NCBI GenBank assembly: GCA_049969715.1
Contig: JBMFOH010000020.1
Span: 1 to 37,866, forward strand
Direction of reading: 5' to 3'
DNA length: 37,866 nt
Source of the DNA: JBMFOH01 sp049969715 [NCBI: bacterium]
GTDB lineage: Bacteria; DUMJ01
Part shown: positions 1-14,526 of the stretch, piece by piece
How the letters are laid out: every line of letters starts with the position of its first letter
Position numbering within the stretch: position 1 is the stretch's first letter
Translations under genes and position numbers: made by a program
The notes under the pieces: model-generated
Databases searched by the model: none
Seen by the model: the letters and a program-made list of their open reading frames with translations, nothing else
What the model was told of the DNA's origin: nothing

Positions 1-77
1 TATCTAGCATATGGGTCAGCTGCATCACGTAGACCATCACCCAGGAAGTTAAACGCTAAGACTGTTATTATTACAAA
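1..77 (-). repeat. 77-bp terminal inverted repeat, left copy
   Basis: These 77 bases are the exact reverse complement of the last 77 bases of the window (37790-37866). Identity stops abruptly at base 78. The segment codes the conserved tail of the left OppC-like permease, including the L-R-D-A-A-D-P-Y-A-R stretch, in the same codon phase as the right copy. Identity covers silent codon positions although the two genes diverge just inside the repeat. The length equals a common assembler k-mer (77), so the contig probably ends where two paralogous loci share sequence. Confidence 0.97.
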
Positions 78-1130
78 AAGAGAAGGTAGTAATTTCCATG
101 GGTAAAGAGCTACTGCAGCTATATCCTGCGCATCTTGTAATAATACACCCCAACTGACTGCTGGAGGCTGCATTCCTAACCCTAAAAAGCTTAGAGCAGT
201 TTCACCTAAAATCATACTAGGAATAGATAGCGTGATTGATACTATCAAATGGCTAGTAAAAGAGGGTAATAGATGTCGTGTTATAATTCTCCATTCACTA
301 GCACCAGCTAATCTGGCAGCTAATGCAAAGTCTTCTTCTCTTAAACTTAATAGCTTTCCTCTTACTACACGTGCTAGCCCACACCAACCTACTATAGATA
401 GAATTATAGTGATGGCAAAATAAGTCTTTATTACTGACCAGTCTTTTGGTAAGGCTGCCGATAATCCTAACCAAAGAGGGATTGTAGGTATAGAACTAAG
501 AAACTCTATAAGTCTTTGGATATAGATATCTACTGTCCCTCCAAAATATCCAGAAATTCCGCCTATGATTACACCAAGGATAAAACTTAGAAATACTCCT
601 ATTAATCCTATAGAGAGAGAAATACGAGCTCCATAAAAGGTTCTAGTAAAAAGACATCTACCCATATTATCTGCGCCAAACAGAAAGATAGGAGTCCCTT
701 CCACACCAAGTAGATGTTTATCAGTAGGGAATATTCCTAAAAGTTTATATGGTTCTCCCTTAACAAAAAAGTGGATATAGTATTTCTGCGTTTTATCTTC
801 TGTGAATTCATACTGAAATGTCTTCATATTCAATTCTCTTTTTAATCCATAAATAAATGGCATTTGTAGCTTTCCATTGTCTACGATATGAATCTTTACA
901 GGAGGTGCATTCTGATAACCTTCAAATCTAGTAACTGGGGTGTAAGGAGAAAGGAATTCGCAAAATATAGCAATAATATATAATAAAAATAAAATAACCC
1001 CTCCAAAGATGGCAAGTTTGTGTCTTCTAAACTTCCACCATATTAATTGCCATTGAGAAGCATAATATATCTTTTCTTCTTTGTATAGTTCTTCTTCAAT
1101 GTTATCAAAGATGTCTTTTGAATCTTTCAT
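1..1130 (-). CDS. Oligopeptide/oligosaccharide ABC transporter permease, DppC/OppC type (3' end missing)
   Basis: Inner-membrane subunit of a family-5 importer, read by hand because the stop lies outside the window (376 codons seen). It starts at ATG 1130, overlapping the upstream permease stop by 4 bases (ATGA). TM1 is near residues 38-58. A periplasmic insertion of roughly 90 residues follows, then the usual LGTD..GRD site, here F-G-A-D-N-M-G-R-C with Cys replacing the last Asp. The EAA-loop equivalent reads A-A-R-L-A-G-A-S-E-W, followed by S-F-L-G-L-G and the terminal G-D-G-L-R-D-A-A-D-P. The right-end gene at 36740 is a close paralogue. Order is binding protein, OppB-like, OppC-like; ATPases may lie beyond the left edge. 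The substrate is inferred from neighbours (lyase, oxidoreductases) and could be an oligosaccharide rather than a peptide. Confidence 0.93.
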   Translation of the reverse strand, partial: MKDSKDIFDNIEEELYKEEKIYYASQWQLIWWKFRRHKLAIFGGVILFLLYIIAIFCEFLSPYTPVTRFEGYQNAPPVKIHIVDNGKLQMPFIYGLKRELNMKTFQYEFTEDKTQKYYIHFFVKGEPYKLLGIFPTDKHLLGVEGTPIFLFGADNMGRCLFTRTFYGARISLSIGLIGVFLSFILGVIIGGISGYFGGTVDIYIQRLIEFLSSIPTIPLWLGLSAALPKDWSVIKTYFAITIILSIVGWCGLARVVRGKLLSLREEDFALAARLAGASEWRIITRHLLPSFTSHLIVSITLSIPSMILGETALSFLGLGMQPPAVSWGVLLQDAQDIAAVALYPWKLLPSLFVIITVLAFNFLGDGLRDAADPYAR

Positions 1131-2122
1131 TCTCCTAACCCTCCATATCTTATCCTAGGATCTGCCCAGGCAAGTAGGATATCAGATATCAACATACCAA
1201 CAACAGTTAATATACTCAAAATTAAGGTAATACTTCCTGCTAAATACATATCTTGTGACATTACTGCTCTTAGTAGTACAGGACCAACTGTCTGAATGTT
1301 TAAGACGATAGAGACCAATGTTTCTCCGGAGATTATACCAGGTAACATCCATCCAATAGTACTTATTAGAGGATTTATTGCTATCCTCACAGGATATTTA
1401 AATATAAGTTTCCTCTCAGGTAAGCCTTTGGCACGAGCAGTAATAACATACTGTTTTCTTAACTCATCAAGTAGATTACCCCTCATAGTACGGATAAGTC
1501 CAGCAGTTCCAGACATTCCAATTAATATTACTGGAAACCATACATGCTTGAGAAGGTCAATGAACTTAGCAAAACTCCAACCAGCTGTAGCAAATTGAGG
1601 GGAGAAAAGCCCTGTCATACTGAAGCCAAATTTGACAAACAGAAACCACATAAGAATGAGAGCTAATAAGAAACCAGGCATAGAGAGTCCTATATATCCT
1701 AAAAAGGTGAATATATAGTCAAAAAGAGAATACTGTCTAATTGCCGAATATATTCCGATAGGAATTGCAATTACCCAAGCAAAGATAGTAGTTAATAGCG
1801 AAATAATAACAGTCATTGGAACACGCTCTGCTAAGATCTCATTTACCGGACGATTCCATTGGAAAGACCTACCCAGGTCACCTTTCATAAAATTTTTAAT
1901 CCAGATGAAATACTGCATATATAGAGGCTTATCTAGACCATAGAGTTCCCTAAGACGAACGACTTCATCTTCATTAAGTTGAATTCCAGATAATCTTAGA
2001 TTGTTTATATATGTGGTTAAATAGTCACCTGGTGGAAGTTGAATAATGATAAAAGAAACAATTGAAAGGATAAGCAATAAGGGAATCGCGATAGCTATCC
2101 GATAGATAATATAATTTAACAT
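1127..2122 (-). CDS. Oligopeptide/oligosaccharide ABC transporter permease, DppB/OppB type
   Basis: A 331-residue inner-membrane permease partnering the OppC-like protein. The N-terminal membrane helix is followed by the family signature S-F-I-I-I-Q-L-P-P-G-D-Y and later Y-G-L-D-K-P-L-Y-M-Q-Y and G-D-L-G-R-S-F. The cytoplasmic coupling loop reads R-Q..V-I-T-A-R-A-K-G-L-P-E-R, and the C-terminus ends with the typical A-D-P-R-I-R-Y. AGGAGG lies 8 bases before the ATG. The gene sits 80 bp downstream of the binding-protein gene, across a strong stem-loop, and overlaps the next permease by 4 bp. The paralogue at 35744 is clearly homologous. Length is normal for the family. Confidence 0.95.
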   Translation of the reverse strand: MLNYIIYRIAIAIPLLLILSIVSFIIIQLPPGDYLTTYINNLRLSGIQLNEDEVVRLRELYGLDKPLYMQYFIWIKNFMKGDLGRSFQWNRPVNEILAERVPMTVIISLLTTIFAWVIAIPIGIYSAIRQYSLFDYIFTFLGYIGLSMPGFLLALILMWFLFVKFGFSMTGLFSPQFATAGWSFAKFIDLLKHVWFPVILIGMSGTAGLIRTMRGNLLDELRKQYVITARAKGLPERKLIFKYPVRIAINPLISTIGWMLPGIISGETLVSIVLNIQTVGPVLLRAVMSQDMYLAGSITLILSILTVVGMLISDILLAWADPRIRYGGLGE

Positions 2123-2201: not shown

Positions 2202-4085
2202 TTACTTTTCGTAGAAGAACTGTTCCGCACTAAAATTAGCAGCAATAGCAAATCCAGAACGAGGAACATTACCCATTCTAGCAGAAACTATCATAGGATA
2301 TTTTACCTTCTCTACAATAGTAATAAGCGGTAAATATTGTTTATGCCAAGCAAGTCCTTCTCTCCAGAGTTTATTATACTCATCAGAACCAGTGACACTT
2401 TCCCATCTCTTCTTATCTAATTCCCAAGCCTTCTTAGCCCAAGCTGGTGGTTCTTCACCTTCTTTGCCAGCTGTATCGTACCATCTACTCCATTCTGGAG
2501 CAAGGAAAGTACCAGATGTCCAACCATTGTTCCAACCTTGGTCATGACACCACATTATTGAAGCTTGGAGCTCATTCGCAGCCCAACGCTGTCCTCTCAA
2601 TTGAGGATCGATCCTCTTTAGAGTAGCTTTAATACCTACCTTCTTGAGGTGCTCTACAAGAAGTTCTCCCACAGGCATAAGGTCAGGAGCTTCTGCTCCA
2701 CATTCGATTAGAATAGTAAATGGCTTACCATCTGGTCTAAGACGGAATCCATCTGCATCTTTCTTGGAAAGTCCAACTTGGTCTAAGAGTTTATTAGCTT
2801 CAGCAACATTATATTCACTTGGAACTGTCTCAGGTAGAGAAGCAAATCCATAGTAGACACTGTCTATTATCTCTTTGCGGTTTATAGCCATGCTTATTGC
2901 TCTTCTAAACCTTACATCTCCAACGATCTTACGCCAAACTGGATCATTATAAGTAAAGTTAAGGAAGAACGCGCTAGAATCTACATGCATATCTAAGAGA
3001 ACTACTTTAAACCCAGCCTTTTCTTCATTCTGTTTATAGAGAGGAAGCTTCACTAGAGCAGTACTTTCACGGAGGAAGTCTACATCTCCAGTTAATACCT
3101 TCATATTAGCCATTTCTACGTCTTGAACCTGAGTTGAGACGATTCTATCTATATAAGGAAGTTGATTTCCTGCAGTATCTACCTTGAAGTAGTATGGGTT
3201 TCTGTCCCATTCATATACTCCACCAGATGCCTTTACTAATATCCATGGAGTAAGGACAGGAAATCCAATACTCTTAGCCTGTGTCTGTTCCCAATTGGTA
3301 AAGTCTTTTAGATTGAATAATTGCCACCATTCATCTTTTAGTCCTTCCTTCTCTAGTAAAGGCTTTAATTTTTCCATAGGGGTATACTTAATATGGAATT
3401 GCTTTAAGTAGTGAGCTGGCTTTAATAGATCAGTGTATCCAACCCAACTTTCAATAGTAAGGTTTCTCAAGAATCCACCATAGGGCTTAGGAAAGGTAAC
3501 TTTGAAGGTATACTCATCGAGTATATCCAATTTCATCGGTTCTCCGTCCATACTATTGCCAACTCTGAATTTTGCAGGGAATACAGGTGTAAGTTTTTCG
3601 TTTAGAAGGACATCTTCATATGTAAACCTTATATCTTCTGTAGTTACCGGATACCCATCAGACCACTTTAATCCCTTTCTTAGTTTAAACGTAAAGATTC
3701 TATTATCTTTAACATCGAAACTCTCAAGTATGTTACCTCTAATACCTTGAGTCCCTATACCAGGTGCACTAAGTAAGGGTTCATTATTCATTACAAATAC
3801 ATCTGGCGCCCAGTCTGCAACACTATGAACTGTTCTTATTGTTCCACCATACTTCCCTACCTTCCAATCAGGAAGGTCTTTTCTGGGTATTAAAACTCCA
3901 GGACCAACCACAAATGGATTCTCAGGTAATCTCTTTTCTACCGGCGGAAGTTTTCCTTGTTTTACTAGCTCAGCAAGCATCGGAGCTTCATTGTACTTCT
4001 TCTGAGCAAAAGAGATAGAACCAAAGCCTACAAAAATGCTAAACACCAAACTCAACACAACCAATCCTACTAGACACTTCTTCAT
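2202..4085 (-). CDS. Extracellular solute-binding protein, family 5 (oligopeptide type)
   Basis: Binds substrate outside the membrane for the permeases at 1-2122. I chose ATG 4085 (627 aa) because AGGAGG lies 11 bases upstream. An upstream in-frame TTG (4094) is too close to the site. Residues 1 to about 28 form a signal peptide ending F-A-Q with no lipobox cysteine, so the protein is probably free in the periplasm. The mature start (residues about 30-60, with K-L-P-P-V-E-K-R-L-P-E-N-P) is typical of long family-5 proteins found in polysaccharide loci. The body has the SBP_bac_5 features K-L-R-K-G-L-K-W-S-D-G-Y-P and F-R-R-A-I-S-M-A-I-N-R. The leader is long (about 150 nt) and the promoter carries the dyad shared with the 5700 operon. 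The ligand is not known; uronate oligosaccharides are an inference. Confidence 0.93.
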   Translation of the reverse strand: MKKCLVGLVVLSLVFSIFVGFGSISFAQKKYNEAPMLAELVKQGKLPPVEKRLPENPFVVGPGVLIPRKDLPDWKVGKYGGTIRTVHSVADWAPDVFVMNNEPLLSAPGIGTQGIRGNILESFDVKDNRIFTFKLRKGLKWSDGYPVTTEDIRFTYEDVLLNEKLTPVFPAKFRVGNSMDGEPMKLDILDEYTFKVTFPKPYGGFLRNLTIESWVGYTDLLKPAHYLKQFHIKYTPMEKLKPLLEKEGLKDEWWQLFNLKDFTNWEQTQAKSIGFPVLTPWILVKASGGVYEWDRNPYYFKVDTAGNQLPYIDRIVSTQVQDVEMANMKVLTGDVDFLRESTALVKLPLYKQNEEKAGFKVVLLDMHVDSSAFFLNFTYNDPVWRKIVGDVRFRRAISMAINRKEIIDSVYYGFASLPETVPSEYNVAEANKLLDQVGLSKKDADGFRLRPDGKPFTILIECGAEAPDLMPVGELLVEHLKKVGIKATLKRIDPQLRGQRWAANELQASIMWCHDQGWNNGWTSGTFLAPEWSRWYDTAGKEGEEPPAWAKKAWELDKKRWESVTGSDEYNKLWREGLAWHKQYLPLITIVEKVKYPMIVSARMGNVPRSGFAIAANFSAEQFFYEK

Positions 4086-4243: not shown

Positions 4244-4291
4244 ACTATATCACTATCTATATTAAAGTGTCAACTACTGAACGAATGTTCA
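4244..4291 (-). promoter_or_regulatory. Promoter and dyad operator of the family-5 transporter operon
   Basis: On the minus strand the order is dyad TGAACATTCGTTCA (4278-4291, arms TGAAC/GTTCA), 4 bp, TTGACA (4268-4273), 18 bp, then TATAGT (4244-4249) preceded by TG. A nearly identical dyad sits 4 bp upstream of the -35 box of the 5700 operon. Placement upstream of -35 suits an activator. Transcription would start near 4237 and run through an A-rich leader. Confidence 0.75.
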
Positions 4292-4329
4292 AGATTATAG
4301 AAAGAAAAGGTCACAATACTAGCGTTTAT

Positions 4330-5559
4330 TTAGAGTCTATGGAATAATAAGGTGGCAAACTGCATCGTATAACTCTCAAAAGGATATTTGCCATAGATCC
4401 TATCCCCTATGATACTTTTCACCTGTTGATTTAATTCTGAATCATCAGGATACCAATTTAGAGGTATCTCAAAGACCCAAGCCCAGTCTGAAGAAGAGCC
4501 TGGATATTTAATCTCTTTTGACAGGATGATGAGTTTATATCTAGAATGCCAATTGAAGGGATTAAGGAGAAAGTCTTTAAAATTCTTACAAGCCATTCTA
4601 ATATTTCCTCCCAATATAGAATGTGTCTCTTGTAGTATGGAAACACCGTGATTTTCTGCTATCCATATCCCCTGGACCAAGGCTTCTAGATTCATAAGAG
4701 TATAAGAACTAGCTCTATCTCTTCTTATGAGTTCAAGTGGCATAGACCCATCCCATGCGATTTGAATCCTTAGGGCATGTCTAAGGGTATTTAACCCTTC
4801 ACTAAACACGTTCACATCACCTAAAACTCTCCCTGCATTAAGAAGGAACAGTGCCTTCCAACTTAGATGGTTGTTTGGCAATAGTGGCTTATATTTACAG
4901 ATATAATCTACGAAAGGCTTAAGCCAAATTCTAAATCTCGTTTTATCTTCATTAGAGATAACTCCTAACCCCTGTAGAATATCAAAAGCCATTATGAATT
5001 TTGGAAAATGATATGAGATTACAATAGGGGTGTCTCCCTCTTTAGTGCTACTGAGTGTAATTATATCCCAGAGGCTTCCTCCATCTTCTGGCTTAGTACA
5101 ATTTTCTATCCATGCATGTAGAATTTCAAGGCTCTTATCCGCATAAGCCTTTTTCTCTGAAAAGGCATAGGCAAGGGCTAATGTATAGGCAGAGAGGGCG
5201 TCTGTTCCTATCTGTCTAGAAAACATCCGCTGTATTTCTCTCTTACTAGAATAGTAAGGAGGAATTTTTATTACCCCGTGAATAGGGTTAGGATTTGAAT
5301 AAAGTAACTGGTCTGCCTCTCTAATAAGGTCATTGTAAGCAGCAAGAGCAATCTGATTACGTGTAGAGATTGCTGATTTTACCTCTACTATACGCCTTTT
5401 AGTAAGGAGAAGATTAGGCCCTGGAGATTCAATAAATGTCGATACAGAAGAAAGTGGGATCCAGCTATTGTTAGCCTTAGAGGATACAGCTAGGAATAGG
5501 AAGGATATTATTAGAGTTACTATAGAAAAATTATTAAGCGTTTTTATACCCTTCATCAT
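4330..5559 (-). CDS. PL5-like alginate (mannuronate) lyase, secreted
   Basis: Predicted to cleave uronate polymers such as poly-mannuronate by beta-elimination in the periplasm or outside the cell. It is 409 aa with an N-terminal hydrophobic segment (residues about 12-28) acting as signal peptide. The rest is helical, as in the (alpha/alpha) toroid of the alginate_lyase family. The catalytic set of the PL5 enzyme A1-III (Asn191-His192, Arg239, Tyr246) lines up with N230-H231, R279 and Y286, with nearly the same spacings. The D-G-S-M-P-L-E-L segment before the Arg is also typical. The gene lies between the transporter and the divergent oxidoreductase operon. It has no Shine-Dalgarno site; a TATAAT lies 9 bases before the ATG, suggesting a near-leaderless mRNA. 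ATG 5556 is an alternative start. The exact polymer is not shown by the sequence. Confidence 0.8.
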   Translation of the reverse strand: MMKGIKTLNNFSIVTLIISFLFLAVSSKANNSWIPLSSVSTFIESPGPNLLLTKRRIVEVKSAISTRNQIALAAYNDLIREADQLLYSNPNPIHGVIKIPPYYSSKREIQRMFSRQIGTDALSAYTLALAYAFSEKKAYADKSLEILHAWIENCTKPEDGGSLWDIITLSSTKEGDTPIVISYHFPKFIMAFDILQGLGVISNEDKTRFRIWLKPFVDYICKYKPLLPNNHLSWKALFLLNAGRVLGDVNVFSEGLNTLRHALRIQIAWDGSMPLELIRRDRASSYTLMNLEALVQGIWIAENHGVSILQETHSILGGNIRMACKNFKDFLLNPFNWHSRYKLIILSKEIKYPGSSSDWAWVFEIPLNWYPDDSELNQQVKSIIGDRIYGKYPFESYTMQFATLLFHRL

Positions 5560-5568
5560 CTTGATAAG

Positions 5569-5574
5569 ATTATA
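5569..5574 (-). promoter_or_regulatory. -10 box just upstream of the lyase start (near-leaderless)
   Basis: TATAAT on the minus strand ends 9 bases before ATG 5559, which would put the transcript start within a few bases of the start codon. No clear -35 box is seen 16-18 bp upstream. Confidence 0.45.
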
Positions 5575-5621
5575 TAATAGAATCTTTATGAATAAAAGAG
5601 ATGTCTTCTTTTTGATATTAG

Positions 5622-5668
5622 TGAACAGATGTTCTTATATTGAATTTTTTTAAGATGTAGACTATAAT
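5622..5668 (+). promoter_or_regulatory. Promoter and dyad operator of the 5700-9936 operon
   Basis: The order is dyad TGAACAGATGTTCT (5622-5635), 4 bp, TTGAAT (5640-5645), 17 bp, then TATAAT (5663-5668). The dyad core GAAC-N4-GTTC and its 4-bp distance to -35 match the site at 4278-4291. It could also serve the divergent lyase gene. Confidence 0.75.
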
Positions 5669-5699
5669 CTCTAGAAAATAATATGAAGGGAGGTTTCAA

Positions 5700-6698
5700 A
5701 TGACTTTAAAGATTGGGATAGTAGGAATGGGAAACATAGGGAATATCCATGCAGGGGTTTATATGGAGAATCCCAAAACAGAGATTGTAGCCGTCTGCGA
5801 TATAATAAAGGAGAAGGCAGATAGAGCTGCAGAGAAATATGGTGCAAGAGCTTTTTATAGTGTAAAAGAAATGGTTTCTAGTGGTATTCATCTTGATGCC
5901 TGTAGTATGACAACTGCTGGAAAAGAAAATGGTGGGGACCATTTTCTTCCAACGATGGAACTTTTAGAGGCTGGGATACCAGTCCTTGGAGAGAAACCTA
6001 TTTCCAACGATATAGAATGTGCAAAGAAGATGGTAGCTTTAGCAAAGGCAAAACAGATTCCTTATGGGATTAACCTTAACCATCGATTTACTCCAGCAGC
6101 CCGTAGGGCAAAAAAGTGGATAGAAGAGGGACGACTTGGTGAGATCAATATGATAAATATGCGTATGTGGATTAATAATCCTAATGAGTCTTCTCCTTGG
6201 TTTCATCTAAGGGCACTTCATCCTCATTCTTTTGATGTAATGAGATATTTCTGTGGAGATGTAAGAAGGGTAGTAGCATTTATGAAAAAGGGAGAGGGAA
6301 GAACAATATGGTCTAATACTCAAGTACTTCTAGAATTCAAAAATGGTGTAATAGGAACACTTACAGGAAGCTATGATGCTGGTGGAAGCTATGGTTTAGA
6401 AAGGTGTGAGGTTGTTGGTTCAAAAGGTCGCTTTGTTTTAGAAGATGCCTGTGAACATTTACATTTCTATAATAGATTTAGTATAGAGACAGAGACCTAT
6501 AGTTATCTTGGCGGTATGCGCTCCTTTAGTGAAACATTTAAGGATCGAATTGGTGTATGGATAGACCAGATAGAATCAGGGGCAAGATACAATGAGATAG
6601 ACGGTTCAGGTGAGGATGGCTTAAAAGCTCAACTTATAATAGAGGCAGCTATAAAGTCTTGGGAAACTAATAGCATTGTAGAAGTAGAGGAGGTCTGA
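5700..6698 (+). CDS. Gfo/Idh/MocA family NAD(P)-dependent oxidoreductase
   Basis: Cytoplasmic oxidoreductase, probably acting on a sugar, uronate or inositol-like compound. The N-terminal Rossmann fold has the dinucleotide loop G-M-G-N-I-G-N-I-H (residues about 9-17). The family E-K-P motif is in G-E-K-P-I-S-N-D. The active-site region contains N-L-N-H-R-F-T-P-A and, further on, H-P-H-S-F-D-V-M. Length 332 aa is normal. GGGAGG precedes the ATG by 7 bases. It is the first gene of a four-gene operon and overlaps the next gene by one base. The last gene of the operon (8932) is a clear paralogue, so the two may catalyse successive oxidation and reduction steps. The substrate is unknown. Confidence 0.92.
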   Translation: MTLKIGIVGMGNIGNIHAGVYMENPKTEIVAVCDIIKEKADRAAEKYGARAFYSVKEMVSSGIHLDACSMTTAGKENGGDHFLPTMELLEAGIPVLGEKPISNDIECAKKMVALAKAKQIPYGINLNHRFTPAARRAKKWIEEGRLGEINMINMRMWINNPNESSPWFHLRALHPHSFDVMRYFCGDVRRVVAFMKKGEGRTIWSNTQVLLEFKNGVIGTLTGSYDAGGSYGLERCEVVGSKGRFVLEDACEHLHFYNRFSIETETYSYLGGMRSFSETFKDRIGVWIDQIESGARYNEIDGSGEDGLKAQLIIEAAIKSWETNSIVEVEEV

Positions 6699-7498
6699 TG
6701 ATAGAATTAGGTGTAAATTCTGTCTTATTTGGTGGTTTTGATTTTGCTACCGCATGTAAATATATAAAACTAGCAGGTTATGACGGGGTAGAGATATCTG
6801 CAATAAAAGGAATGTGTGAACATCTAGAATTAGATAGATGGAAGGAACAGGCGTCTACGCTTAAGCGGATAGTCGAAGATAATGGGTTAAAATTCTTGTC
6901 TATGGAGGTAGCATCGCTAGATGAAGATAGACTAACAAAAGCTTTTGAAGCTGGGGTAGAATTAGGAATACCAGTAATAAATGTAGGTCCTGGTGGAAAG
7001 TCCAATGTACCAGAAGATCTAGAGAATTCTATAAATCAATTGAAGAAGATGTCGGAAAAGGCAGAAAAATATGGGGTAACTCTTTGCGTTAAAGCACACG
7101 TAGGATGTGCTATATATAATACCCCTACTACCTTAGAAGCTATGTCAAGGATAGAATCTCCTGCCTTTGGTATAGATATGGACCCAAGCCACATATATCG
7201 TGCAGGAGAGCTTCCTGAAGAGGCACTACCGAAGGTAATTTCTAGAGTAAAACATATACATATTCGTGACTGTAAAGGTCGTAATACTGGTCCAGGAGCA
7301 CCTATGATGCAGGCTTGTGGTCGAGGAGATATAAATCTAATGGGCTACTGTAAGGCTATGGTAGAAGGTGGATACTCTGGACCTGTAGTGCTAGAAATTA
7401 TAGGGGCATTACAACTTCCACTCCCAGAGGTTGTAGCTATAGCCTCAGAAAGTTATGGCTATCTTAATGCCTGTCTAAAATATCTTGGTGCTAGATAG
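6698..7498 (+). CDS. Sugar phosphate isomerase/epimerase (AP_endonuc_2 TIM barrel)
   Basis: A 266-aa xylose-isomerase-like TIM-barrel protein of the IolE/IolI/DTE type, expected to epimerise, isomerise or dehydrate keto-sugars with a divalent metal. Likely metal and active-site segments are C-V-K-A-H-V-G, G-I-D-M-D-P-S-H, H-I-H-I-R-D-C-K-G and the terminal V-V-L-E-I Glu. The start overlaps the previous stop (TGATG), with AGGAGG just upstream. Pairing with Gfo/Idh/MocA genes is a familiar arrangement in inositol and rare-sugar catabolism, where the oxidoreductase makes the keto substrate. The specific sugar cannot be read from the sequence. Confidence 0.9.
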   Translation: MIELGVNSVLFGGFDFATACKYIKLAGYDGVEISAIKGMCEHLELDRWKEQASTLKRIVEDNGLKFLSMEVASLDEDRLTKAFEAGVELGIPVINVGPGGKSNVPEDLENSINQLKKMSEKAEKYGVTLCVKAHVGCAIYNTPTTLEAMSRIESPAFGIDMDPSHIYRAGELPEEALPKVISRVKHIHIRDCKGRNTGPGAPMMQACGRGDINLMGYCKAMVEGGYSGPVVLEIIGALQLPLPEVVAIASESYGYLNACLKYLGAR

Positions 7499-7514
7499 GT
7501 TAAGGAGGAACCTT

Positions 7515-8912
7515 ATGAAGAAGCCAAATCTAATTCTAATTGGTATAGATAGTCTAAGGGCAGACCATATGAGCTTATATGGATACAATAGACTTACTAC
7601 ACCCCATATTGATAGATTCTCAGAAGATGGATGTGTATTTATGAATACCTTTAGTACTCATATACCGACAACTTCAGGTTATTCAAATATGCTTACTGGT
7701 TTGGATGCATTTGGAACAAATGTAGTAGCTCTTAGACATAAAGGAGACCTTGCCGAAGGGGTAGCAACTCTTCCTGAAGTTCTAGCTAAAGATGGTTATA
7801 ATACAACTTGTGTTGGGTTTAAAGGCAATCCTGCTTCTAGGGGATTTCAAAACTATCTTGAATATGCAGGTTGGGGTTCTTATGCAGAGGGAAGAAGCCC
7901 AAAGGCAGAGAATCTCAATGCTGTAGCAATACCAGAGCTCAAACGTCTAGCAAAAGAGGATAAACCATTCTTTCTATTTTTAAGACATATGGACCCTCAT
8001 GCCCCATACCTACCTCCAAGTCCATTTGAAAGGATGTTCTATGATGGAGATGAATATGACCCTAATAACAAATCTTTAGAGCCTGTGTATGCATTTAAGC
8101 CATTCCGTGATTTCTTTCTTACCTGGTTTCCACCTGGATGTACAGATAAAGACTATATAATAGCCCAGTATGATGGTGCTATAGCCTATATGGATGCCTG
8201 TATAAGGAATATATTCACTACTATTGAATCTCTCGGGATAGAAGAAGATACTCTTGTAGTAATAACAGCCGATCATGGAGAAACCCTCTATGACCACGAT
8301 TGTTATTTCGATCACCATGGTCTTTATGATTGCACATTGAGGGTTCCCCTTGTATTTAAATTTCCAGGAAGGGTTCCACCCAAAAAGAGATTCAATGATT
8401 ATGTGCAGCTTAAAGACATTATGCCAACCGTCCTAGATCTTATGGGGATTGAAACAAATATCAGATTCGATGGTAGAAGCCTTGTCCCTCTTATGAAAGG
8501 GAAGAGCATTGAGGCTGAACCAGAATTTTATATAACAGAATGTACATGGATGCGTAAGCATGGATGGCGTACTCCTGAATGGAAACTTATCCATGCCCTT
8601 GAACCTGACTTTCACTTTAAACCAGAGATAGAGCTCTATAATCTAATTAAAGATCCTGAAGAGAACCACAATCTTGCTGAGGAAGAACCAGAGGTTGTTA
8701 AATTCTTAGAAAATAGAATGCATGCACATATAAAGAAAAGAGAAGAGGAAACAGGTAGGACAAACCCTATGTATACAAATCTAGACTGGCATGGATTTGA
8801 GGGTAAGGGCCCATTCAAGTCTTCTCAAGAGGCGTATGATACCCTATATATAGGTTCTCCTGAAGCGGCAAAGAAGATACAGGCGTTACTGGCAGAGAGA
8901 AATAAGAAATAG
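7515..8912 (+). CDS. Sulfatase-like hydrolase, alkaline phosphatase superfamily (Thr at nucleophile position)
   Basis: 465 aa from ATG 7515, chosen because AAGGAGG lies at 7502-7508; an upstream in-frame GTG at 7485 has no such site. Metal ligands of the sulfatase fold are present: D12 in G-I-D-S-L-R-A-D-H, D253-H254 in T-A-D-H-G-E, and H-x-H-G after it. Where sulfatases have C/S-x-P-x-R before L-T-G, this protein has T52-T-S-G-Y56, so formylglycine cannot form. A Thr nucleophile is known in phospho-transferring relatives (EptA, LtaS, NPP). It may therefore be a phosphodiesterase or phosphomonoesterase rather than a sulfatase. No signal peptide is seen, so it acts in the cytoplasm. It is the third gene of the operon and related to the protein at 9951. 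Confidence 0.88.
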   Translation: MKKPNLILIGIDSLRADHMSLYGYNRLTTPHIDRFSEDGCVFMNTFSTHIPTTSGYSNMLTGLDAFGTNVVALRHKGDLAEGVATLPEVLAKDGYNTTCVGFKGNPASRGFQNYLEYAGWGSYAEGRSPKAENLNAVAIPELKRLAKEDKPFFLFLRHMDPHAPYLPPSPFERMFYDGDEYDPNNKSLEPVYAFKPFRDFFLTWFPPGCTDKDYIIAQYDGAIAYMDACIRNIFTTIESLGIEEDTLVVITADHGETLYDHDCYFDHHGLYDCTLRVPLVFKFPGRVPPKKRFNDYVQLKDIMPTVLDLMGIETNIRFDGRSLVPLMKGKSIEAEPEFYITECTWMRKHGWRTPEWKLIHALEPDFHFKPEIELYNLIKDPEENHNLAEEEPEVVKFLENRMHAHIKKREEETGRTNPMYTNLDWHGFEGKGPFKSSQEAYDTLYIGSPEAAKKIQALLAERNKK

Positions 8913-8931
8913 GATTTATGGAGGAAATGTT

Positions 8932-9936
8932 ATGTTAAGGGTATGTGTGATAGGACTTGGTCCAATAGGAAACTTGCATGCTGATATCTATAAGGAAGAT
9001 ACATTAGCTGAGCTTGTTGGGGTCTGTGATATTATACCTGAAAGAGCAGAGAAAACTGGTAAAAGATTAGGAGTGCCTTGGTATACAGATGTTCAAAAGA
9101 TGATCTCAGAGCTTTCACCTGATCTTTGTAGTGTCGCTACAGGCGGCTATGAGTATAGTAGTGACCATTTTGAACCAACAATACAGGCATTAGAGGCAGG
9201 TTGCCATGTCTTATGTGAGAAGCCAATATGTAATGATATAGAGAAAGCTAAAAAGATGGTCGAACTAGCGAGAGAGAAAAATCTCTGTTTTGGGATTAAT
9301 CTAAACCATAGATTTACCCCAGCATTTAGAGTTGCCAAAAGGTGGTTTGATGAAGGTAAGATAGGAGACCTACTCTTTATAAATATGTCTCTATGGATAG
9401 GTAAACCACACGACTTTGAATCTCCGTATTATCATTTAAAAGCCTTAAATCCTCACTCTGTAAATATAATGCAACAATTTGGCGGACCAGTAGATAAAGT
9501 TCAGTGCTTTGCAATGAAAGCGCCAGGAAGAACTATTTGGTCTACTGCATCTATAAATATGAAATTTAAGAGTGGCGCAGTAGGGCATCTCACTAGTAGT
9601 TATGATATAGAACGGGGTCATCCTATGGAAAGGTGCGAGGTAGCAGGAATAAAGGGACGCCTTGTAATAGAGGATATGTGGAAGGAAGCAACTCTCTATC
9701 CTGCAGGTAATCTAGAGAAAACAGTTTATACAAACCCAATCTTTGGTGGCTTTAGAGACTTTAATGATACATTTAGAGATAGAATACATAGTTTTGTAAA
9801 ACAGATAGTAGATGGGGCAAAGCCTGAAGAGATAGATGGTTCAGGGGTAGAAGGACTAGAGGCTCAAAGAGTTATAGAAGCAGCTATTAGGTCTCTAGAT
9901 ACAGGTAAGGTTATAAGTGTAGATGATATAAGGTAG
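8932..9936 (+). CDS. Gfo/Idh/MocA family oxidoreductase, paralogue of the 5700 gene
   Basis: 334 aa with Rossmann loop G-L-G-P-I-G-N-L-H near residue 9 and the E-K-P motif in C-E-K-P-I-C-N-D. It shares I-N-L-N-H-R-F-T-P-A and R-T-I-W-S with the first gene of the operon; by eye about half the residues match. The active-site stretch differs: N-P-H-S-V-N-I-M instead of H-P-H-S-F-D-V-M. GGAGG lies 7 bases before the ATG. It is the last gene of the operon; its stop lies inside the hairpin shared with the convergent gene. It probably handles a related substrate or the reverse step of the same pathway. Confidence 0.92.
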   Translation: MLRVCVIGLGPIGNLHADIYKEDTLAELVGVCDIIPERAEKTGKRLGVPWYTDVQKMISELSPDLCSVATGGYEYSSDHFEPTIQALEAGCHVLCEKPICNDIEKAKKMVELAREKNLCFGINLNHRFTPAFRVAKRWFDEGKIGDLLFINMSLWIGKPHDFESPYYHLKALNPHSVNIMQQFGGPVDKVQCFAMKAPGRTIWSTASINMKFKSGAVGHLTSSYDIERGHPMERCEVAGIKGRLVIEDMWKEATLYPAGNLEKTVYTNPIFGGFRDFNDTFRDRIHSFVKQIVDGAKPEEIDGSGVEGLEAQRVIEAAIRSLDTGKVISVDDIR

Positions 9937-9952
9937 GGTAAACCCCTACCTT
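9930..9952. terminator. Bidirectional hairpin between convergent operons
   Basis: AAGGTAGGG (9930-9938) pairs with CCCTACCTT (9944-9952) around a 5-base loop. The stops of both converging genes lie in the stem. The following bases are AT-rich, but there is no clean T run, so termination strength is uncertain. Confidence 0.6.
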
Positions 9953-11297
9953 ATATAAATCTTTGTCTTTCTACCCATTCATCCCAGGTTAGGTGCATCT
10001 CTTTAAGGGTATTTTCTACCCATCTCCTAGTTGGAAGTCCTCTAGATGCCTGAATCATTATAGGGTTAGGTTTACTTCCTAACTTATCATCGATCCATCT
10101 AGTTAATTTAAGTTCTAGTTCATCTACAATATCTTTTTCTTTATCATATAAATTATTTTCTTCTCTAGGGTCATATTTAAGATTAAACAGTTCTTTAGGA
10201 GGTTTTTCATATAGACCTTGATCTATTGTCTTTATAAACTTCCACTCCTTTGTCCTAATAGATATACTAGCTCTCCATGTGCATTCTGTAGATACAACCT
10301 CTGTATAAAGTTCCTTACACTCCCCTTTTATTAAAGGTAGAAGAGACTTCCCTTCTAATCTTATATTTTTCTTGATATTAAGTAGATCTAAGATGGTAGG
10401 TGCTATATCTATATGTTGAACCAAGGCTTCAATTCTTCTATTAGTAAATCTGTCTCCAAGCTTCATTATAAGAGGAATATGAATAGTAGGTTCATATAAC
10501 CCTTGATGGTCAAAGAAAAAGTTATGTTCAGTCATATTCTCCCCGTGATCTGCGGTTATTATAATTATGGTGTCTTCTTCTATCCCTAGAGTTCTAAGAT
10601 ACTCTAGTAGTTCTCCTATTGAGTCATCTAAATACTTTATCTCTCCATCATATTGGGCTATTATATAATCTGCATCTGTTGGATTCCCTAACAGGTCATA
10701 GTGCCACTTTTTAAAGAAAGGATAAGGTATCTGTCTTTTAGCTTCATCCATACTCTTATTATTTGGATCAAATGGGTCTTCACCTTTATAAAAGATACCC
10801 TTATATCCTTCTGGGGGAAGATATGGAGAATGAGGGTCCCAATAATGTAAGAATAAAAAGAAATCTTCTCTGTAATGTTCTTTAAGCCACCTTATGGCTT
10901 CATAAGTTATCTCTTCTGCTCTGATAGAGTGAGTAAATTTCGTCTTAGGGTTTATATAGTATTCATAACCTTTTGCAAACCAAGGTTTTATATTAAATAG
11001 GTTATCGACTGCTGCGGTTCTATAGTCATTATCTCTAAGTATCTCTGGCAATAGAGGGATACTAGAGTCAAGAACTTCATCTGAACCATGTGACACTACC
11101 TTATGGGTAATACTATGCAACCCAGTAAATATGGTAGTATGGGCTGGAGTAGTAGGAATTCCATCTGCAATGGCATTATAGAATATGACTCCTTTTTCTG
11201 CTAGCTTATCTATATTAGGGCTTGTATTGAACTTATACCCGTAGCAGCTTAAATGATCCGCCCTTAGGGTGTCTATAATTATGAATAAGACCTTCAT
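9951..11297 (-). CDS. Sulfatase-like hydrolase, alkaline phosphatase superfamily (T-T-P-A-H motif)
   Basis: 448 aa, cytoplasmic (no signal peptide). Metal-site residues are D9 in I-I-D-T-L-R-A-D-H, D250-H251 in T-A-D-H-G-E and H264. The nucleophile segment reads T49-T-P-A-H53 before I-F-T-G: the Pro of the C-x-P-x-R sulfatase motif is kept, but Cys/Ser is Thr and Arg is His. It is a paralogue of the protein at 7515, sharing D-P-H-x-P-Y-L-P-P, D-P-N-N-K-S and Y-I-I-A-Q-Y-D. AAGGAGAG precedes the ATG. It is the last gene of the sugar ABC operon (gap 16 bp to the permease), suggesting it removes a sulfate or phosphate group from an imported sugar. Confidence 0.87.
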   Translation of the reverse strand: MKVLFIIIDTLRADHLSCYGYKFNTSPNIDKLAEKGVIFYNAIADGIPTTPAHTTIFTGLHSITHKVVSHGSDEVLDSSIPLLPEILRDNDYRTAAVDNLFNIKPWFAKGYEYYINPKTKFTHSIRAEEITYEAIRWLKEHYREDFFLFLHYWDPHSPYLPPEGYKGIFYKGEDPFDPNNKSMDEAKRQIPYPFFKKWHYDLLGNPTDADYIIAQYDGEIKYLDDSIGELLEYLRTLGIEEDTIIIITADHGENMTEHNFFFDHQGLYEPTIHIPLIMKLGDRFTNRRIEALVQHIDIAPTILDLLNIKKNIRLEGKSLLPLIKGECKELYTEVVSTECTWRASISIRTKEWKFIKTIDQGLYEKPPKELFNLKYDPREENNLYDKEKDIVDELELKLTRWIDDKLGSKPNPIMIQASRGLPTRRWVENTLKEMHLTWDEWVERQRFI

Positions 11298-11313
11298 AAC
11301 TTCTCTCCTTTCA

Positions 11314-12150
11314 TTAAGCCTTTAAAGCACCACTCGTTATCCCTGCTATGTAATACTTCATAGTAAGGAGGAATAATATTACTATCGGTAAGGCAGCTAT
11401 CGTATATCCAGCAAAGAGGGGACCCCATGCTGCACTTCCTGCATATCTACTTTGAAATACAACCAACCCTACTGTTATAGGAAATAGCTCTGCCCTGGTT
11501 ACTGTGACAAGTGGCCAGATGTACTCATTCCATGTATTGAGAAAATTCATAAGAGACACTGTAAATAGGATAGATTTAGATAAGGGTAATGCTATTTTTA
11601 AGAAACATTGACTCTCAGAGGCTCCATCAATCTTGGCTGCCTCGAATAATTCCCTAGGAAGGGAGGAGAAAAAACTCCGTAATATGAATACAGGCATTAC
11701 TTGGCCCCCTGATATGTATGGGAGTATAAGTGCCCAATAGGTGTTTAGCAATTTTAAATCCCTAACAACTAGAAAACGAGGTACAAGGGTAAGTATCCCA
11801 GGAATCATAAGTAAGGATAAGAGTAATATAAAGATACCTTCCTTACCTGGAAAGGTAAACCTGGCAAAAACATAGGCATCTATCGAGGATAGAACTAGAA
11901 CTCCTAACATGGTTACTACACTCACTAATATCGTATTTAATAGAAATGGGGAGACCTCCTTCCATGCATCAGTATAGTTTCTATATTCTAGAGAGGATGG
12001 GAGACCAAAGAAATTATGAAAGACCTCTTCTGTAGTCTTGAAAGATGATATAACCATAAATATAAATGGATAGAGACTTATAAAGATAAGAAAAATTATT
12101 ACTATATGGAATGGTAGATCATGCCCTATCTGTCTATATCTCTTGCTCAT
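11314..12150 (-). CDS. Carbohydrate ABC transporter permease, MalG type
   Basis: 278-aa inner-membrane permease of a CUT1-type importer with about six hydrophobic segments. The EAA loop is visible as E-A-A-K-I-D-G-A-S, followed by I-A-L-P-L-S-K. Another MalG-like feature is F-L-N-T-W-N-E-Y-I-W-P. Its ATG overlaps the TAA of the MalF-type gene by one base, so translation is likely coupled. No ATPase gene is in the operon, so an MsmK-like ATPase elsewhere probably serves it. Confidence 0.94.
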   Translation of the reverse strand: MSKRYRQIGHDLPFHIVIIFLIFISLYPFIFMVISSFKTTEEVFHNFFGLPSSLEYRNYTDAWKEVSPFLLNTILVSVVTMLGVLVLSSIDAYVFARFTFPGKEGIFILLLSLLMIPGILTLVPRFLVVRDLKLLNTYWALILPYISGGQVMPVFILRSFFSSLPRELFEAAKIDGASESQCFLKIALPLSKSILFTVSLMNFLNTWNEYIWPLVTVTRAELFPITVGLVVFQSRYAGSAAWGPLFAGYTIAALPIVILFLLTMKYYIAGITSGALKA

Positions 12151-13046
12151 TAGTTCCCTTCTGATGTTTTGACATATTTTAAATTTATATATGTAAGTAT
12201 AAGGAGGATAAAGAAGAGTACTACTCCTATACTACAGGCGTAGCCCATCTTATTAAAGTAGAAGGCATTATTGTATAGGTATAATCCGGGAACCATAGTG
12301 CTATTTCCTGGACCGCCATTAGTAAGTACCATTATCCCTGCATAACCTTGTAAAGCATTTATAATACTTAATATAAGAACCAATTTAATCTGGCCAGCTA
12401 TCAATGGTATATCTATAAATCTTATCCTTTTCAAACCTGTAACACCATCGATCTTAGCTGCATCGAATATATCTGAAGAGATATTCTGAAGCCCTGCTAG
12501 GAAGATCAAAAACCATAGGCTAGAAATCCAAGGGAACCCAAGGAATAATATTGCATAGAGAGCAGTAGAGAAATCACCAAGCCAAGCTCTACATAGATTG
12601 GGTACACCTATAATCTTTAGAAATTGGTTTAGAAGTCCATATTGAGGATTATAGACAAACTTCCACACTAAAAGGTTTACCATAGAGGGTACAACCATAG
12701 GAATGACGAATAAAGCCCTATAAACATAAGCCGATCTTACATCGAAAATATTAAATACTAGTTCTGCTCCTAATAGAGGGAGAGTAATAGCTATCAGTAC
12801 TCTAAAGATAGTAAGGATAGTTATATTCTTTGCTGAGACAGACATTACAGGGTCTTTAAAGAGTAATTGAATGAAATTTTCCAGTCCTGCATATCTAGGT
12901 AATGTAAATCCATCCCAATCAAAAAAGGAATGATACACAGCAGAGATTGCTGGATAGTATTCAAAGATGAAGAGTAAAATAAAAGTAGGCAGAAGCAATA
13001 AATAGCAATTTCTCTTTTTGAATATCTCTTTAAAAAGGTCTATCAT
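12150..13046 (-). CDS. Carbohydrate ABC transporter permease, MalF type
   Basis: 298-aa partner permease. The N-terminal segment Y-Y-P-A-I-S-A-V-Y-H-S-F-F-D-W is typical of LacF/UgpA-like proteins. The coupling loop reads D-A-A-K-I-D-G-V-T, followed by I-D-I-P-L-I, and L-T-N-G-G-P-G-N-S-T is the usual MalF-family stretch before the last helices. It begins 20 bp after the binding-protein stop with an AAGGA site. Confidence 0.94.
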   Translation of the reverse strand: MIDLFKEIFKKRNCYLLLLPTFILLFIFEYYPAISAVYHSFFDWDGFTLPRYAGLENFIQLLFKDPVMSVSAKNITILTIFRVLIAITLPLLGAELVFNIFDVRSAYVYRALFVIPMVVPSMVNLLVWKFVYNPQYGLLNQFLKIIGVPNLCRAWLGDFSTALYAILFLGFPWISSLWFLIFLAGLQNISSDIFDAAKIDGVTGLKRIRFIDIPLIAGQIKLVLILSIINALQGYAGIMVLTNGGPGNSTMVPGLYLYNNAFYFNKMGYACSIGVVLFFILLILTYINLKYVKTSEGN

Positions 13047-13065
13047 TTATCCTTATTTAGAGCTT

Positions 13066-14526
13066 TTATTTCTTTATTCCCCACTCTGGATGGGCATCTA
13101 TAAGTGCATTTGCTGCCTTTTCCATTTCCCCCTGAATCTGTTCTCCTGCCTGTTGTAGTGTTATTTTATCTGCTAGATATTCTTGAAGTATCTGATAGAA
13201 TGATTCGGCGTATTCTCTGGTTAGACCTCTATAAAAAGATTCTACCCTAAATACACCCTTTTCTAGAGATTTGACAAATGGTTCTAGCCTTTTGTCTAAG
13301 CCTTTCCTTGCTTTTAGTGCTGGGGCAGCTGCACCTAAATCATTTGCCATAGGAATGAAGTTTTGTGGAGCTGTTATAAACATCAACCAATCTACAGTGT
13401 CATTAAGTAACCCTCTGTCCTTAGTAGTAGATGGAATTATCCATGCCCCTGCTCCAGTTACTCCTCCTACCGCTGCTGCAGAGATACCAGTGGCATATTT
13501 AGAACTCTCTTTGGTAATCCTAGGAAAATAAAATAAGCCATACTGGAATTTCCTTAAAGGATCTACTTCTACAGGCTTTATCTGTGCTGCACTCTCATAC
13601 ATCATAGCAGCCTGTCCATTTATAAAAAGCATATAAGCTCCTTGGGAATCTACCCCCAAGTATCCATCCTCCCAGTATTTAGACCACTCCTTGAAAAGCC
13701 TTAACTGTTCCTGCCATTGTGGATCTCTAGCACTGTATACTCCTCTCTTTATTGCCTGAACCAGTTCTTTTTGACTTATAGCAGAAGCCTCTATTGCTGT
13801 TCTTTTTACCTGACCCTTAACTCCTTTGATCTCTGCCATCTTAGAATCAAGTATCATATCTTGGATAGTCCTAAGACTCCAATTAGCTCTCATCTTTTCT
13901 CCTGCCATAGGAAATGCAAATGGTATATAACCTGCCTGTTTTATCTTGGCTTGAATATCTATAAACTCCTTCCAAGTGTTAGGGACCCTTATCTCCAACT
14001 TCTTGAAAATATCCTTATTATAAAATATTGCTGTCCCTGTGATACCTGTTGGAAGTACATATTGACTTTTCCCATCCGGAGCCTTCCCTGTAGCTATTGC
14101 TATTTCTAGAAATATATCCTTCCAATGCTGATTTCCCTTTACATATGGATCGGGCTTTTCTAGAAATGGGGCTAGGTCTACATACCATCCTTTATATGCA
14201 TTCCTATTAACTTCAGAAAACAGTTGTTCTGATATCTCAGGGGCTGTTCCTCCTGTTAATTGGGTGGTTAACCATACATCCGCATCCATACCTTCTGGAG
14301 GTCTTACAAATTGGATATCTACATCAGGATGCAATATCTCATATTCCTTCTCTAGCTTCCACAGATAGGTAGGGGGATCCCATCTATCTGTACTAAGTCT
14401 TTCTCTTGGATAATACTCCCTAGCATCCATTCTTATTATCTTTTTTTGAGCAAGACCAATAGACGAGGCGCTAGCTATCAATAGTACCAAAAATACTATA
14501 GAGATAATTCTTATACCTTTATTCAT
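13066..14526 (-). CDS. Carbohydrate ABC transporter solute-binding protein, family 1
   Basis: I chose ATG 14526 (486 aa); seven upstream codons from a TTG contain the GGAGGAGG ribosome site itself and are unlikely to be translated. The signal peptide is about 27 residues and ends G-L-A-Q with no lipobox Cys. The mature protein has SBP_bac_1 features such as T-A-I-F-Y-N-K-D-I-F-K-K and F-I-N-G-Q-A-A-M-M-Y-E-S. It heads the operon with two permeases and a sulfatase-like gene, driven by a near-consensus promoter. The ligand is unknown; a sulfated or phosphorylated sugar is an inference from the last gene. Confidence 0.93.
   Translation of the reverse strand: MNKGIRIISIVFLVLLIASASSIGLAQKKIIRMDAREYYPRERLSTDRWDPPTYLWKLEKEYEILHPDVDIQFVRPPEGMDADVWLTTQLTGGTAPEISEQLFSEVNRNAYKGWYVDLAPFLEKPDPYVKGNQHWKDIFLEIAIATGKAPDGKSQYVLPTGITGTAIFYNKDIFKKLEIRVPNTWKEFIDIQAKIKQAGYIPFAFPMAGEKMRANWSLRTIQDMILDSKMAEIKGVKGQVKRTAIEASAISQKELVQAIKRGVYSARDPQWQEQLRLFKEWSKYWEDGYLGVDSQGAYMLFINGQAAMMYESAAQIKPVEVDPLRKFQYGLFYFPRITKESSKYATGISAAAVGGVTGAGAWIIPSTTKDRGLLNDTVDWLMFITAPQNFIPMANDLGAAAPALKARKGLDKRLEPFVKSLEKGVFRVESFYRGLTREYAESFYQILQEYLADKITLQQAGEQIQGEMEKAANALIDAHPEWGIKK

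What the first reader, a model, noticed from the sequence alone, without database searches (positions are those of the whole stretch)
4244..5668. Same 14-bp dyad 4 bp upstream of -35 at two promoters: a local regulon
TGAACGAATGTTCA (4278-4291) precedes the transporter operon promoter and TGAACAGATGTTCT (5622-5635) precedes the Gfo/Idh operon promoter. Both are GAAC-N4-GTTC and both lie exactly 4 bp from the -35 box, on the side where an activator would touch RNA polymerase. They flank the alginate-lyase gene and join transporter, lyase and catabolic operon in one inferred regulon. The core also equals the Gram-positive LexA/DinR box (GAAC-RNRY-GTTC), so either an SOS link or an unrelated sugar regulator with a look-alike site is possible. 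No regulator gene for it is in the window.
Basis: partly seen in the sequence, partly recalled or inferred. Interest (0 to 1): 0.75.

Follow-up and report, generated by a model that had tools for sequence, protein, structure and literature searches.

The report
Paired sugar-regulator (SorC-type) binding sites
Two matching mirror-image DNA sites in front of a sugar-uptake operon and a sugar-breakdown operon are most likely docking sites for one known type of sugar-sensing gene switch (SorC/DeoR), not for the DNA-damage switch LexA that they resemble.

Summary
TGAACGAATGTTCA (4278-4291) and TGAACAGATGTTCT (5622-5635) are the only exact GAAC-N4-GTTC dyads in the window, each 4 bp upstream of a -35 box. 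Site 1 recurs with the same geometry in all three related draft genomes reached, in a promoter pointing away from nrdJ. The orthologous transporter gene is on the same contig in one (G002), linked by a 141-bp contig-end overlap in another (G001), and unlinked in the third (G003). The bare core is not enriched in relatives, so the regulon is small. A stricter palindrome, fitted to sites already seen, hits six loci in the three genomes and nothing else: a SorC/DeoR-subfamily regulator gene (3 of 3), a pgi-malK gap (2) and another family-5 binding-protein gene (1). The regulator's dyad TGAACAAAATTTCA equals the core of the Bacillus subtilis DeoR operator (PMC11229326), and by my numbering the two base-contacting arginines are conserved. 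No LexA-type DNA-binding domain was found (two genomes searched), and no LexA above cut-off (three). Best reading: operators of a distantly encoded, autoregulated SorC/DeoR sugar regulator, probably a repressor. In G001 site 2's operon follows a promoter with a variant dyad at the same spacing. Control of the lyase gene is unproven.

The parts
4278..4291 (-). Dyad 1, TGAACATTCGTTCA on the - strand: proposed SorC/DeoR operator of the family-5 ABC transporter operon
   Evidence: same dyad core and geometry in G001, G002, G003
4244..4273 (-). Promoter of the transporter operon: TTGACA (4273-4268), 18 bp, TATAGT (4249-4244)
   Evidence: TTGACA invariant in 4 of 4 aligned promoters
2202..4085 (-). 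Family-5 solute-binding protein gene (SBP_bac_5), first gene of the transporter operon; ATG at 4085 after AAGGAGG (ORF listed from TTG at 4094)
   Evidence: 88-89% identical orthologues in G001-G003
1127..2122 (-). OppB-like permease of the same operon
   Evidence: matches below the curated cut-offs
3..1130 (-). Second permease reading frame of the same operon, running to the window's end; named from its sequence and position
   Evidence: ORF; the name is inference
5622..5635 (+). Dyad 2, TGAACAGATGTTCT: proposed operator of the Gfo/Idh-sulfatase operon
   Evidence: in G001 the orthologous operon, headed there by a binding-protein gene, has CTGAAAAATTTTTCAG at the same spacing
5640..5668 (+). 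Promoter of the Gfo/Idh operon: TTGAAT, 17 bp, TATAAT
5700..9936 (+). Catabolic operon: Gfo/Idh oxidoreductase (5700-6698), sugar isomerase-like TIM barrel (6698-7498), sulfatase (7485-8912), second Gfo/Idh (8932-9936)
   Evidence: same gene order in G001:C17, 80-90% identical
4330..5559 (-). Alginate_lyase-family (PF05426) gene between the two dyads; divergent from site 2; regulation by it not shown
   Evidence: homologues 66-68% identical sit in other contexts without an exact dyad in L001 and L002
14646..16835 (+). NrdJ ribonucleotide reductase: in the relatives the gene on the other side of dyad 1; in the window about 10 kb away and without a dyad upstream

Best explanation
The two dyads are operators of one SorC-family, DeoR-subfamily sugar regulator (in the sense of Bacillus subtilis DeoR) encoded elsewhere in the genome. 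A dimer of its N-terminal helix-turn-helix domains reads the two half-sites TGAA(C/A), 4 bp upstream of the -35 box. Most likely it represses the transporter operon and the Gfo/Idh-sulfatase operon, and lets go when its C-terminal domain binds a sugar phosphate made from the imported sugar. It also controls its own gene. Shown here: the sites, their geometry, conservation of the site 1 promoter, a matching site before the regulator gene in three relatives, and identity of that site with the core of the crystallised B. subtilis DeoR operator. Inferred: binding, repression rather than activation, the effector, and presence of the regulator in the window's own organism.
For: Each of 3 related genomes has exactly one zero-mismatch match to GAACN4GTTC-N5-TTGAM: G002:C23, between transporter gene and nrdJ on one contig; G001:C53 and G003:C57, beside nrdJ at a contig end. 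In G001 the last 141 bp of C53 equal the first 141 bp of the transporter contig C35 in the right orientation, and the leader keeps 22 bases identical to G002's, so the promoter probably leads to the transporter across a short insertion; in G003 the transporter contig starts inside the gene. In the 4-way alignment 13 of the 14 TTGAACATTTGTTC columns and all of TTGACA are invariant, while the bases between them vary. TGAACANNNKTTCA occurs at 6 loci in the 3 genomes (8 strand-wise matches; reversed pattern 1): SorC gene 3, pgi-malK gap 2, another SBP_bac_5 gene 1; the third genome's gap keeps the core with one outer mismatch. The regulator has PF04198 at E 2.5e-73 or better; G001 and G002 have one such gene each, G003 two. 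Its best solved relative is B. subtilis DeoR (8r7y, E 2.6e-46), ISRPTISRM against ISRPTVSRL. The crystal operator is ATTGAACAAAATTTCAAT, with R34 and R39 contacting bases (PMC11229326). The window's Gfo operon orthologue in G001 follows a binding-protein gene whose promoter carries a perfect TGAAAAATTTTTCA at the same spacing, i.e. the other half-site of the DeoR operator. Two SorC relatives at 39% identity (G165, G018) have TGAACATTTGTGCA just upstream.
Against: The window's own genome is not held, so its regulator was not seen. Bare-core counts are below the reversed control; TGAAN6TTCAN4TTGACA with up to 2 mismatches totals 20, 14 and 10 against controls 22, 19 and 23. The pattern TGAACANNNKTTCA was written after its six loci had been seen, so it shows the lack of other loci, not independent discovery, and it misses the relatives' transporter sites, which end in T. 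Only in G002 are site 1 and the transporter gene on one contig. Site 2 has no relative with the same letters; G001's version is the A/A variant. The downstream half-operator of B. subtilis DeoR was not seen in these promoters (by eye). Of 19 SorC-gene upstream stretches only 5 reach 9 of 10 matches. No binding data exist.
Confidence: 0.77

Rival explanations
1. The same SorC/DeoR protein acts as an activator: a dyad centred about 46 bp upstream of the start, just behind the -35, is where an activator could touch RNA polymerase.
For: The distance from dyad to -35 is the same (4 bp from the 14-mer) in the four site 1 promoters, in window site 2, in G001's Gfo-operon promoter and in the regulator's own promoter; -35 and -10 boxes are left free.
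Against: SorC proteins are described as often repressing carbohydrate genes, and B. subtilis DeoR represses from an operator at -60 to -21 whose palindrome is at the upstream end (PMC11229326, introduction). In the pgi-malK gap the dyad would overlap the -35 region of a possible promoter (by eye). The site 1 promoters have near-consensus boxes.
Confidence: 0.2
2. The dyads are LexA/DinR (Cheo) boxes and the operons belong to the SOS response.
For: Both cores fit the inner positions of the Gram-positive LexA consensus CGAACRNRYGTTYC (PMC2248561).
Against: LexA's DNA-binding domain PF01726 was not found in G001 or G002 (G003 not searched with it; the search rings in 10 of 14 control genomes). 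TIGR00498 is above cut-off in 0 of 3 genomes, with one below-cut-off S24 match in G002 on a protein whose N-terminus looks, by eye, like a phage-type repressor (it rings in 9 of 14 controls, above cut-off in 6). Yet the site is present in all three. Of the 6 strict loci none is at a repair gene. The outer C of the LexA box is T here. The genomes are drafts, so absence is not absolute.
Confidence: 0.03
3. A different local regulator with a look-alike palindrome (for example TetR, IclR or a DeoR-proper family protein) binds the sites, and the SorC gene's dyad is coincidental.
For: A motif alone does not identify a family. G002 has a DeoR-proper (PF08220) gene near its lyase gene. Other regulator families were not searched genome-wide.
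Against: The strict dyad occurs at 6 loci only, 3 of them before the SorC gene in three genomes, with the same spacing and the exact 14-mer of the known DeoR operator.
Confidence: 0.13
4. Site 2 is a chance dyad; only site 1 is functional.
For: No relative with the identical site 2; 17 recurrent dyads of this half-length arise in the window's intergenic DNA.
Against: Exact core and same spacing to a promoter; expected number of exact cores in the 13 intergenic stretches is 0.014; the orthologous operon in G001 is preceded by a perfect variant dyad at that spacing.
Confidence: 0.13

Closest known systems
Bacillus subtilis DeoR and the dra-nupC-pdp operator (SorC/DeoR subfamily)
   Same: Identical 14-mer TGAACAAAATTTCA in that operator and before the relatives' regulator gene; palindrome upstream of the -35; PF04198 effector domain; both arginines reported to contact bases conserved by my numbering.
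   Different: Targets are family-5 transporter and Gfo/Idh-sulfatase operons; palindrome 4 bp rather than about 8 bp from the -35 (the 8 is my count, taking TTTACA as -35); no downstream direct repeat seen; V where DeoR has the lysine that, as I recall, binds deoxyribose-5-phosphate, so probably another effector.
LexA/DinR (Cheo) box of Gram-positive bacteria
   Same: Core GAAC-N4-GTTC with RNRY inside.
   Different: No LexA-type DNA-binding domain found in the two relatives searched for it; the strict loci are not repair genes; outer base differs.
LsrR and SorC regulators of enterobacteria
   Same: Same protein family (4go1, 2w48); control of sugar-type transport operons (recalled).
   Different: Their operator letters were not compared here.

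Membership tests
SorC/DeoR-subfamily regulon | Regulator with C-terminal PF04198 sugar-binding domain | tested here: met
   E 2.2e-73, 1.4e-75, 2.5e-73 in 3 of 3 relatives; not observable in the window's own genome
SorC/DeoR-subfamily regulon | Short homeodomain-like HTH at the N-terminus (DeoR type, not the winged CggR type) | tested here: met
   Alignment to 8r7y from residue 10 on, ISRPTISRM against ISRPTVSRL; the match to B. subtilis CggR starts only at residue 67
SorC/DeoR-subfamily regulon | Operator palindrome of the DeoR type | tested here: met
   TGAACAAAATTTCA before the regulator gene in 3 of 3 genomes equals the crystal operator core; the window sites are the C/C version of the same half-site
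SorC/DeoR-subfamily regulon | Second, downstream half-operator for a tetramer | tested here: inconclusive
   No clear second half-site by eye in the promoters read; the downstream DeoR half-operator is itself degenerate
SorC/DeoR-subfamily regulon | Binding, and release by a phosphorylated sugar | not testable with these tools
   needs purified protein
LexA/SOS regulon | LexA gene in the genome | tested here: not met
   PF01726 0 of 2 genomes; TIGR00498 above cut-off 0 of 3, one below-cut-off S24 match; drafts of unknown completeness
LexA/SOS regulon | Box before DNA-repair genes | tested here: inconclusive
   0 of the 6 strict dyad loci; of the 35 bare-core sites, I looked at the surroundings of ten; repair-gene promoters were not scanned

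The most novel reading that the evidence does not exclude
A single SorC/DeoR-type regulator serves an uncultured lineage as coordinator of sulfated or uronic polysaccharide use. It controls several family-5 transporters, a malK-type ATPase and Gfo/Idh-sulfatase operons through three combinations of two half-sites (C/C, C/A, A/A), and it acts from just behind the -35 as an activator or dual regulator rather than a simple repressor. Promoters carrying its dyad would have been reused when a 10-kb catabolic block came to lie between the transporter and nrdJ.
Probability: 0.2. Interest if true: 0.5.

Novelty: new member of a known kind. Interest (0 to 1): 0.4.

Why it matters
It also warns that a GAAC-N4-GTTC dyad, easily read as a LexA box, can be a SorC/DeoR operator, so SOS regulons inferred from the box alone in genomes without lexA may be wrong. 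Finally, an operator core is identical between B. subtilis and this lineage although the regulators have different targets and probably different ligands.

Tried and rejected
SOS/LexA: rejected. The bare core as a genome-wide regulon marker: rejected, counts below the reversed-pattern control. Dyad 1 as primarily an nrdJ element: considered, because in the relatives it lies on the nrdJ side of the transporter promoter; rejected because in the window nrdJ has no dyad upstream while the transporter keeps it at the same spacing. Palindromes before family-5 binding-protein genes: 31 upstream stretches went into (27 transporter loci, the two window promoters, L023 and L059); the script found a promoter candidate in 19. 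At the expected offset, 5 of 7 pairs or better were printed for 6: L028, L037, L023, both window sites, and L054, which is not of the TGAA type. L059 was too short for the script and was read directly. The G003:C76 transporter site: at E 1e-100 G001 has no match to that gene, and the G002 match is 52% identical with no dyad upstream, so it stays a single-genome observation. Rfam: no match in the window at gathering thresholds. The second SorC gene of G003 has a different recognition segment and no dyad. Papers on novelty: in the listings (12 of 54 shown; 10 of 14 shown) I saw no SorC regulon with alginate lyase or sulfatase; from these listings I read only one passage of PMC8579813. This covers the held library only. 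PMC11229326: outline with abstract, introduction, one methods section, one results section, first part of the discussion, and passages. PMC2248561: two passages.

Full report
Observation. They are the only exact GAAC-N4-GTTC in the window. Each 14-mer is followed after 4 bp by a -35 box: TTGACA-18-TATAGT for the transporter on the - strand, and TTGAAT-17-TATAAT for the Gfo/Idh operon on the + strand. Shuffles of the 13 intergenic stretches give 0.014 such cores on average and two or more in 0.0002 of 20,000 trials. The motif was picked after the fact, and 17 recurrent dyads of that half-length exist in the same DNA, all others with at most one G/C per half. In-window statistics alone would not settle it.

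Relatives. No genome is held for the window. The lyase protein led to two draft genomes, G001 and G002, and the binding protein to a third, G003. Their transporter orthologues are 88-89% identical, so I treat them as the same genus by inference. In G002 the transporter and nrdJ are divergent neighbours on one contig with the dyad between them. In the window a block of about 10 kb (lyase, Gfo/Idh operon, second sulfatase, an SBP_bac_8 transporter) lies between the dyad and nrdJ. The dyad with N5-TTGAM has exactly one zero-mismatch match in each of the three genomes, each time in the same promoter upstream of nrdJ and pointing away from it. The alignment of the four promoters shows TTGAACATTTGTTC with one variable column (C in the window) and TTGACA fully conserved, while the five bases between dyad and -35 vary.

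Linkage. In G001 the dyad lies at the end of C53, and the 302 bp directly before the transporter gene on C35 do not contain it. However, the last 141 bp of C53 equal the first 141 bp of C35 in the matching orientation, and the C35 leader keeps 22 identical bases (73% over 117) of G002's leader. The simplest reading is that the promoter drives the transporter across a short inserted element; a repeat shared by other contigs is not excluded. In G003 the dyad is 25 bp from the end of C57 and the transporter contig begins inside the gene, so linkage there is inferred from homology alone.

Site 2. In G001:C17 the orthologues of the whole Gfo/Idh, isomerase, sulfatase, Gfo/Idh operon (80-90% identical, same order) are headed by another family-5 binding-protein gene, 68% identical to the window's. 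That gene's promoter has the perfect palindrome CTGAAAAATTTTTCAG, again 4 bp (from TGAAAAATTTTTCA) before TTGACA. It is the only zero-mismatch hit to TGAA-N6-TTCA-N4-TTGACA in the three genomes. G002 and G003 have no match to the operon's first gene at E 1e-30. Site 2 thus has a positional counterpart in one relative, with A in place of C in the half-site.

Which regulator. In the same search, TGAACAAAATTTCA followed after 4 bp by TTGAAA appeared in all three genomes directly before one gene. It encodes a 318-residue protein with the PF04198 sugar-binding domain, the SorC family. G001 and G002 have one such gene each, G003 two. Its best match among solved structures is B. subtilis DeoR bound to DNA (8r7y, E 2.6e-46), then SorC and LsrR. 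In PMC11229326 the crystallised operator is ATTGAACAAAATTTCAAT. Its inner 14 bases are identical to the dyad before the relatives' gene. The paper names R34 and R39 as contacting bases; allowing five extra residues in the crystallised chain (my inference) they align with the two arginines of ISRPTISRM. The DeoR operator contains one TGAAC half and one TGAAA half. The sites found here are C/C (transporter, malK, both window sites), C/A (regulator gene, G003:C76) and A/A (G001 Gfo operon), so one protein can account for all.

Specificity. TGAACANNNKTTCA has 8 strand-wise matches at 6 loci in the three genomes, against 1 for the reversed pattern: the SorC gene in 3 of 3, the gap between a bifunctional-type sugar isomerase gene (bact-PGI_C) and a malK-like ATPase gene in 2 of 3 (the third keeps the core), and one more family-5 binding-protein gene in G003. 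I wrote this pattern to cover sites already seen, so it is not an independent discovery; what it adds is that nothing else in about 6.6 Mb matches. It misses the relatives' transporter sites, which end in T and were found. None of the six is a repair gene. By contrast, the bare core is below its control (15 and 20 against 24 and 27). Dyad-plus-TTGAM with up to two mismatches is below control on both strands in all three genomes. TGAA-N6-TTCA-N4-TTGACA with up to two mismatches totals 20, 14 and 10 against 22, 19 and 23. Among its 8 hits with at most one mismatch, 7 lie before a family-5 binding-protein promoter or the SorC gene and 1 lies inside a reading frame. The regulon is small. Of 192 relatives, 11 have SorC proteins at E 1e-25 or better, the three of this genus among them. 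Of 19 SorC genes whose upstream DNA I scored, 5 reach 9 of 10 matches (uncorrected shuffle frequencies 0.007-0.01): the three of this genus plus G165 and G018, which look alike and may count as one more lineage. The other 14 reach 8 or fewer.

LexA. The core fits the Gram-positive LexA consensus (PMC2248561). PF01726 was not found in G001 or G002. TIGR00498 is above cut-off in 0 of 3 genomes, with one below-cut-off match in G002 to a protein whose N-terminus looks like a phage-type repressor. These are drafts, but a site kept in three genomes with no LexA found is unlikely to be a LexA box.

Mechanism. Shown: sites, spacing, conservation, a candidate regulator with the same kind of site before its own gene. 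Inferred: a dimer of DNA-binding domains sits on the dyad; repression by crowding RNA polymerase at the -35, possibly with the second dimer of a tetramer reaching over the promoter; release by a sugar phosphate. DeoR's deoxyribose-phosphate lysine (position 141, recalled) is V in this protein, which suggests another ligand. In the pgi-malK gap the dyad would overlap the -35 region of a possible promoter (by eye), which favours repression. The fixed distance to the -35 leaves activation open.

What is not shown. The regulator was not seen in the window's own organism. The lyase gene is divergent from site 2, and its homologues in L001 and L002 have no exact dyad nearby (L001 has a one-mismatch GAACTTCAGTTA at 8760 before the esterase-lyase pair), so joining it to the regulon is a guess. 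The substrate is uncertain; sulfatases, Gfo/Idh enzymes and a lyase point to a sulfated or uronic polysaccharide.

Verdict. A well-supported local regulon of a known regulator kind in an unstudied lineage: real, ordinary in mechanism, useful as a correction of the LexA reading.

Noticed in passing
window 4292-14585 (approximate) against L019: About 10 kb (lyase, Gfo/Idh-sulfatase operon, second sulfatase, SBP_bac_8 transporter) lies between transporter and nrdJ in the window but not in G002, with one edge close to dyad 1; gain in the window or loss in relatives not decided.
   Followed up: partly
L019:4576-7869: The nrdJ gene of G002 carries an intein with a LAGLIDADG domain; the window's and G001's nrdJ show none.
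   Followed up: no
G001-G003: 21 scored family-5 binding-protein matches at E 1e-60 or better in each genome of 2.1-2.4 Mb (the same number in all three suggests a scoring limit), an unusually large set of such transporters.
   Followed up: no
L023:4975-5211 and L029 (last 302 bases): A short repeat-like insertion between promoter and transporter gene in G001, shared by the ends of contigs C53 and C35 (141 identical bp); it may be a mobile-element remnant.
   Followed up: partly
L105, L103, L107 upstream of the SorC gene; window about 5560-5580: The -10 boxes of the SorC gene and of the lyase gene lie only about 8-15 bp before the start codon (by eye), suggesting leaderless mRNAs.
   Followed up: no
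L033:1430-1460: A different dyad, TTTGATAT-N5-ATATCAAA, precedes a G001 binding-protein gene 80% identical to the window's and followed by a sulfatase gene; perhaps another regulator's site.
   Followed up: no
L022:4572-4585, L020:5256-5269, L139:1501-1514: The dyad core in the pgi-malK gap is conserved in three genomes, and in G001 and G003 overlaps the TGA stop codon of the upstream gene.
   Followed up: partly
window 29009-31637: An AraC-type response regulator and a histidine kinase beside a sugar-type transporter: a second, separate regulation system in the window.
   Followed up: no
G003:C22 (L133): A second SorC gene directly before another family-5 binding-protein gene, with a different recognition segment and no TGAAC dyad.
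   Followed up: partly
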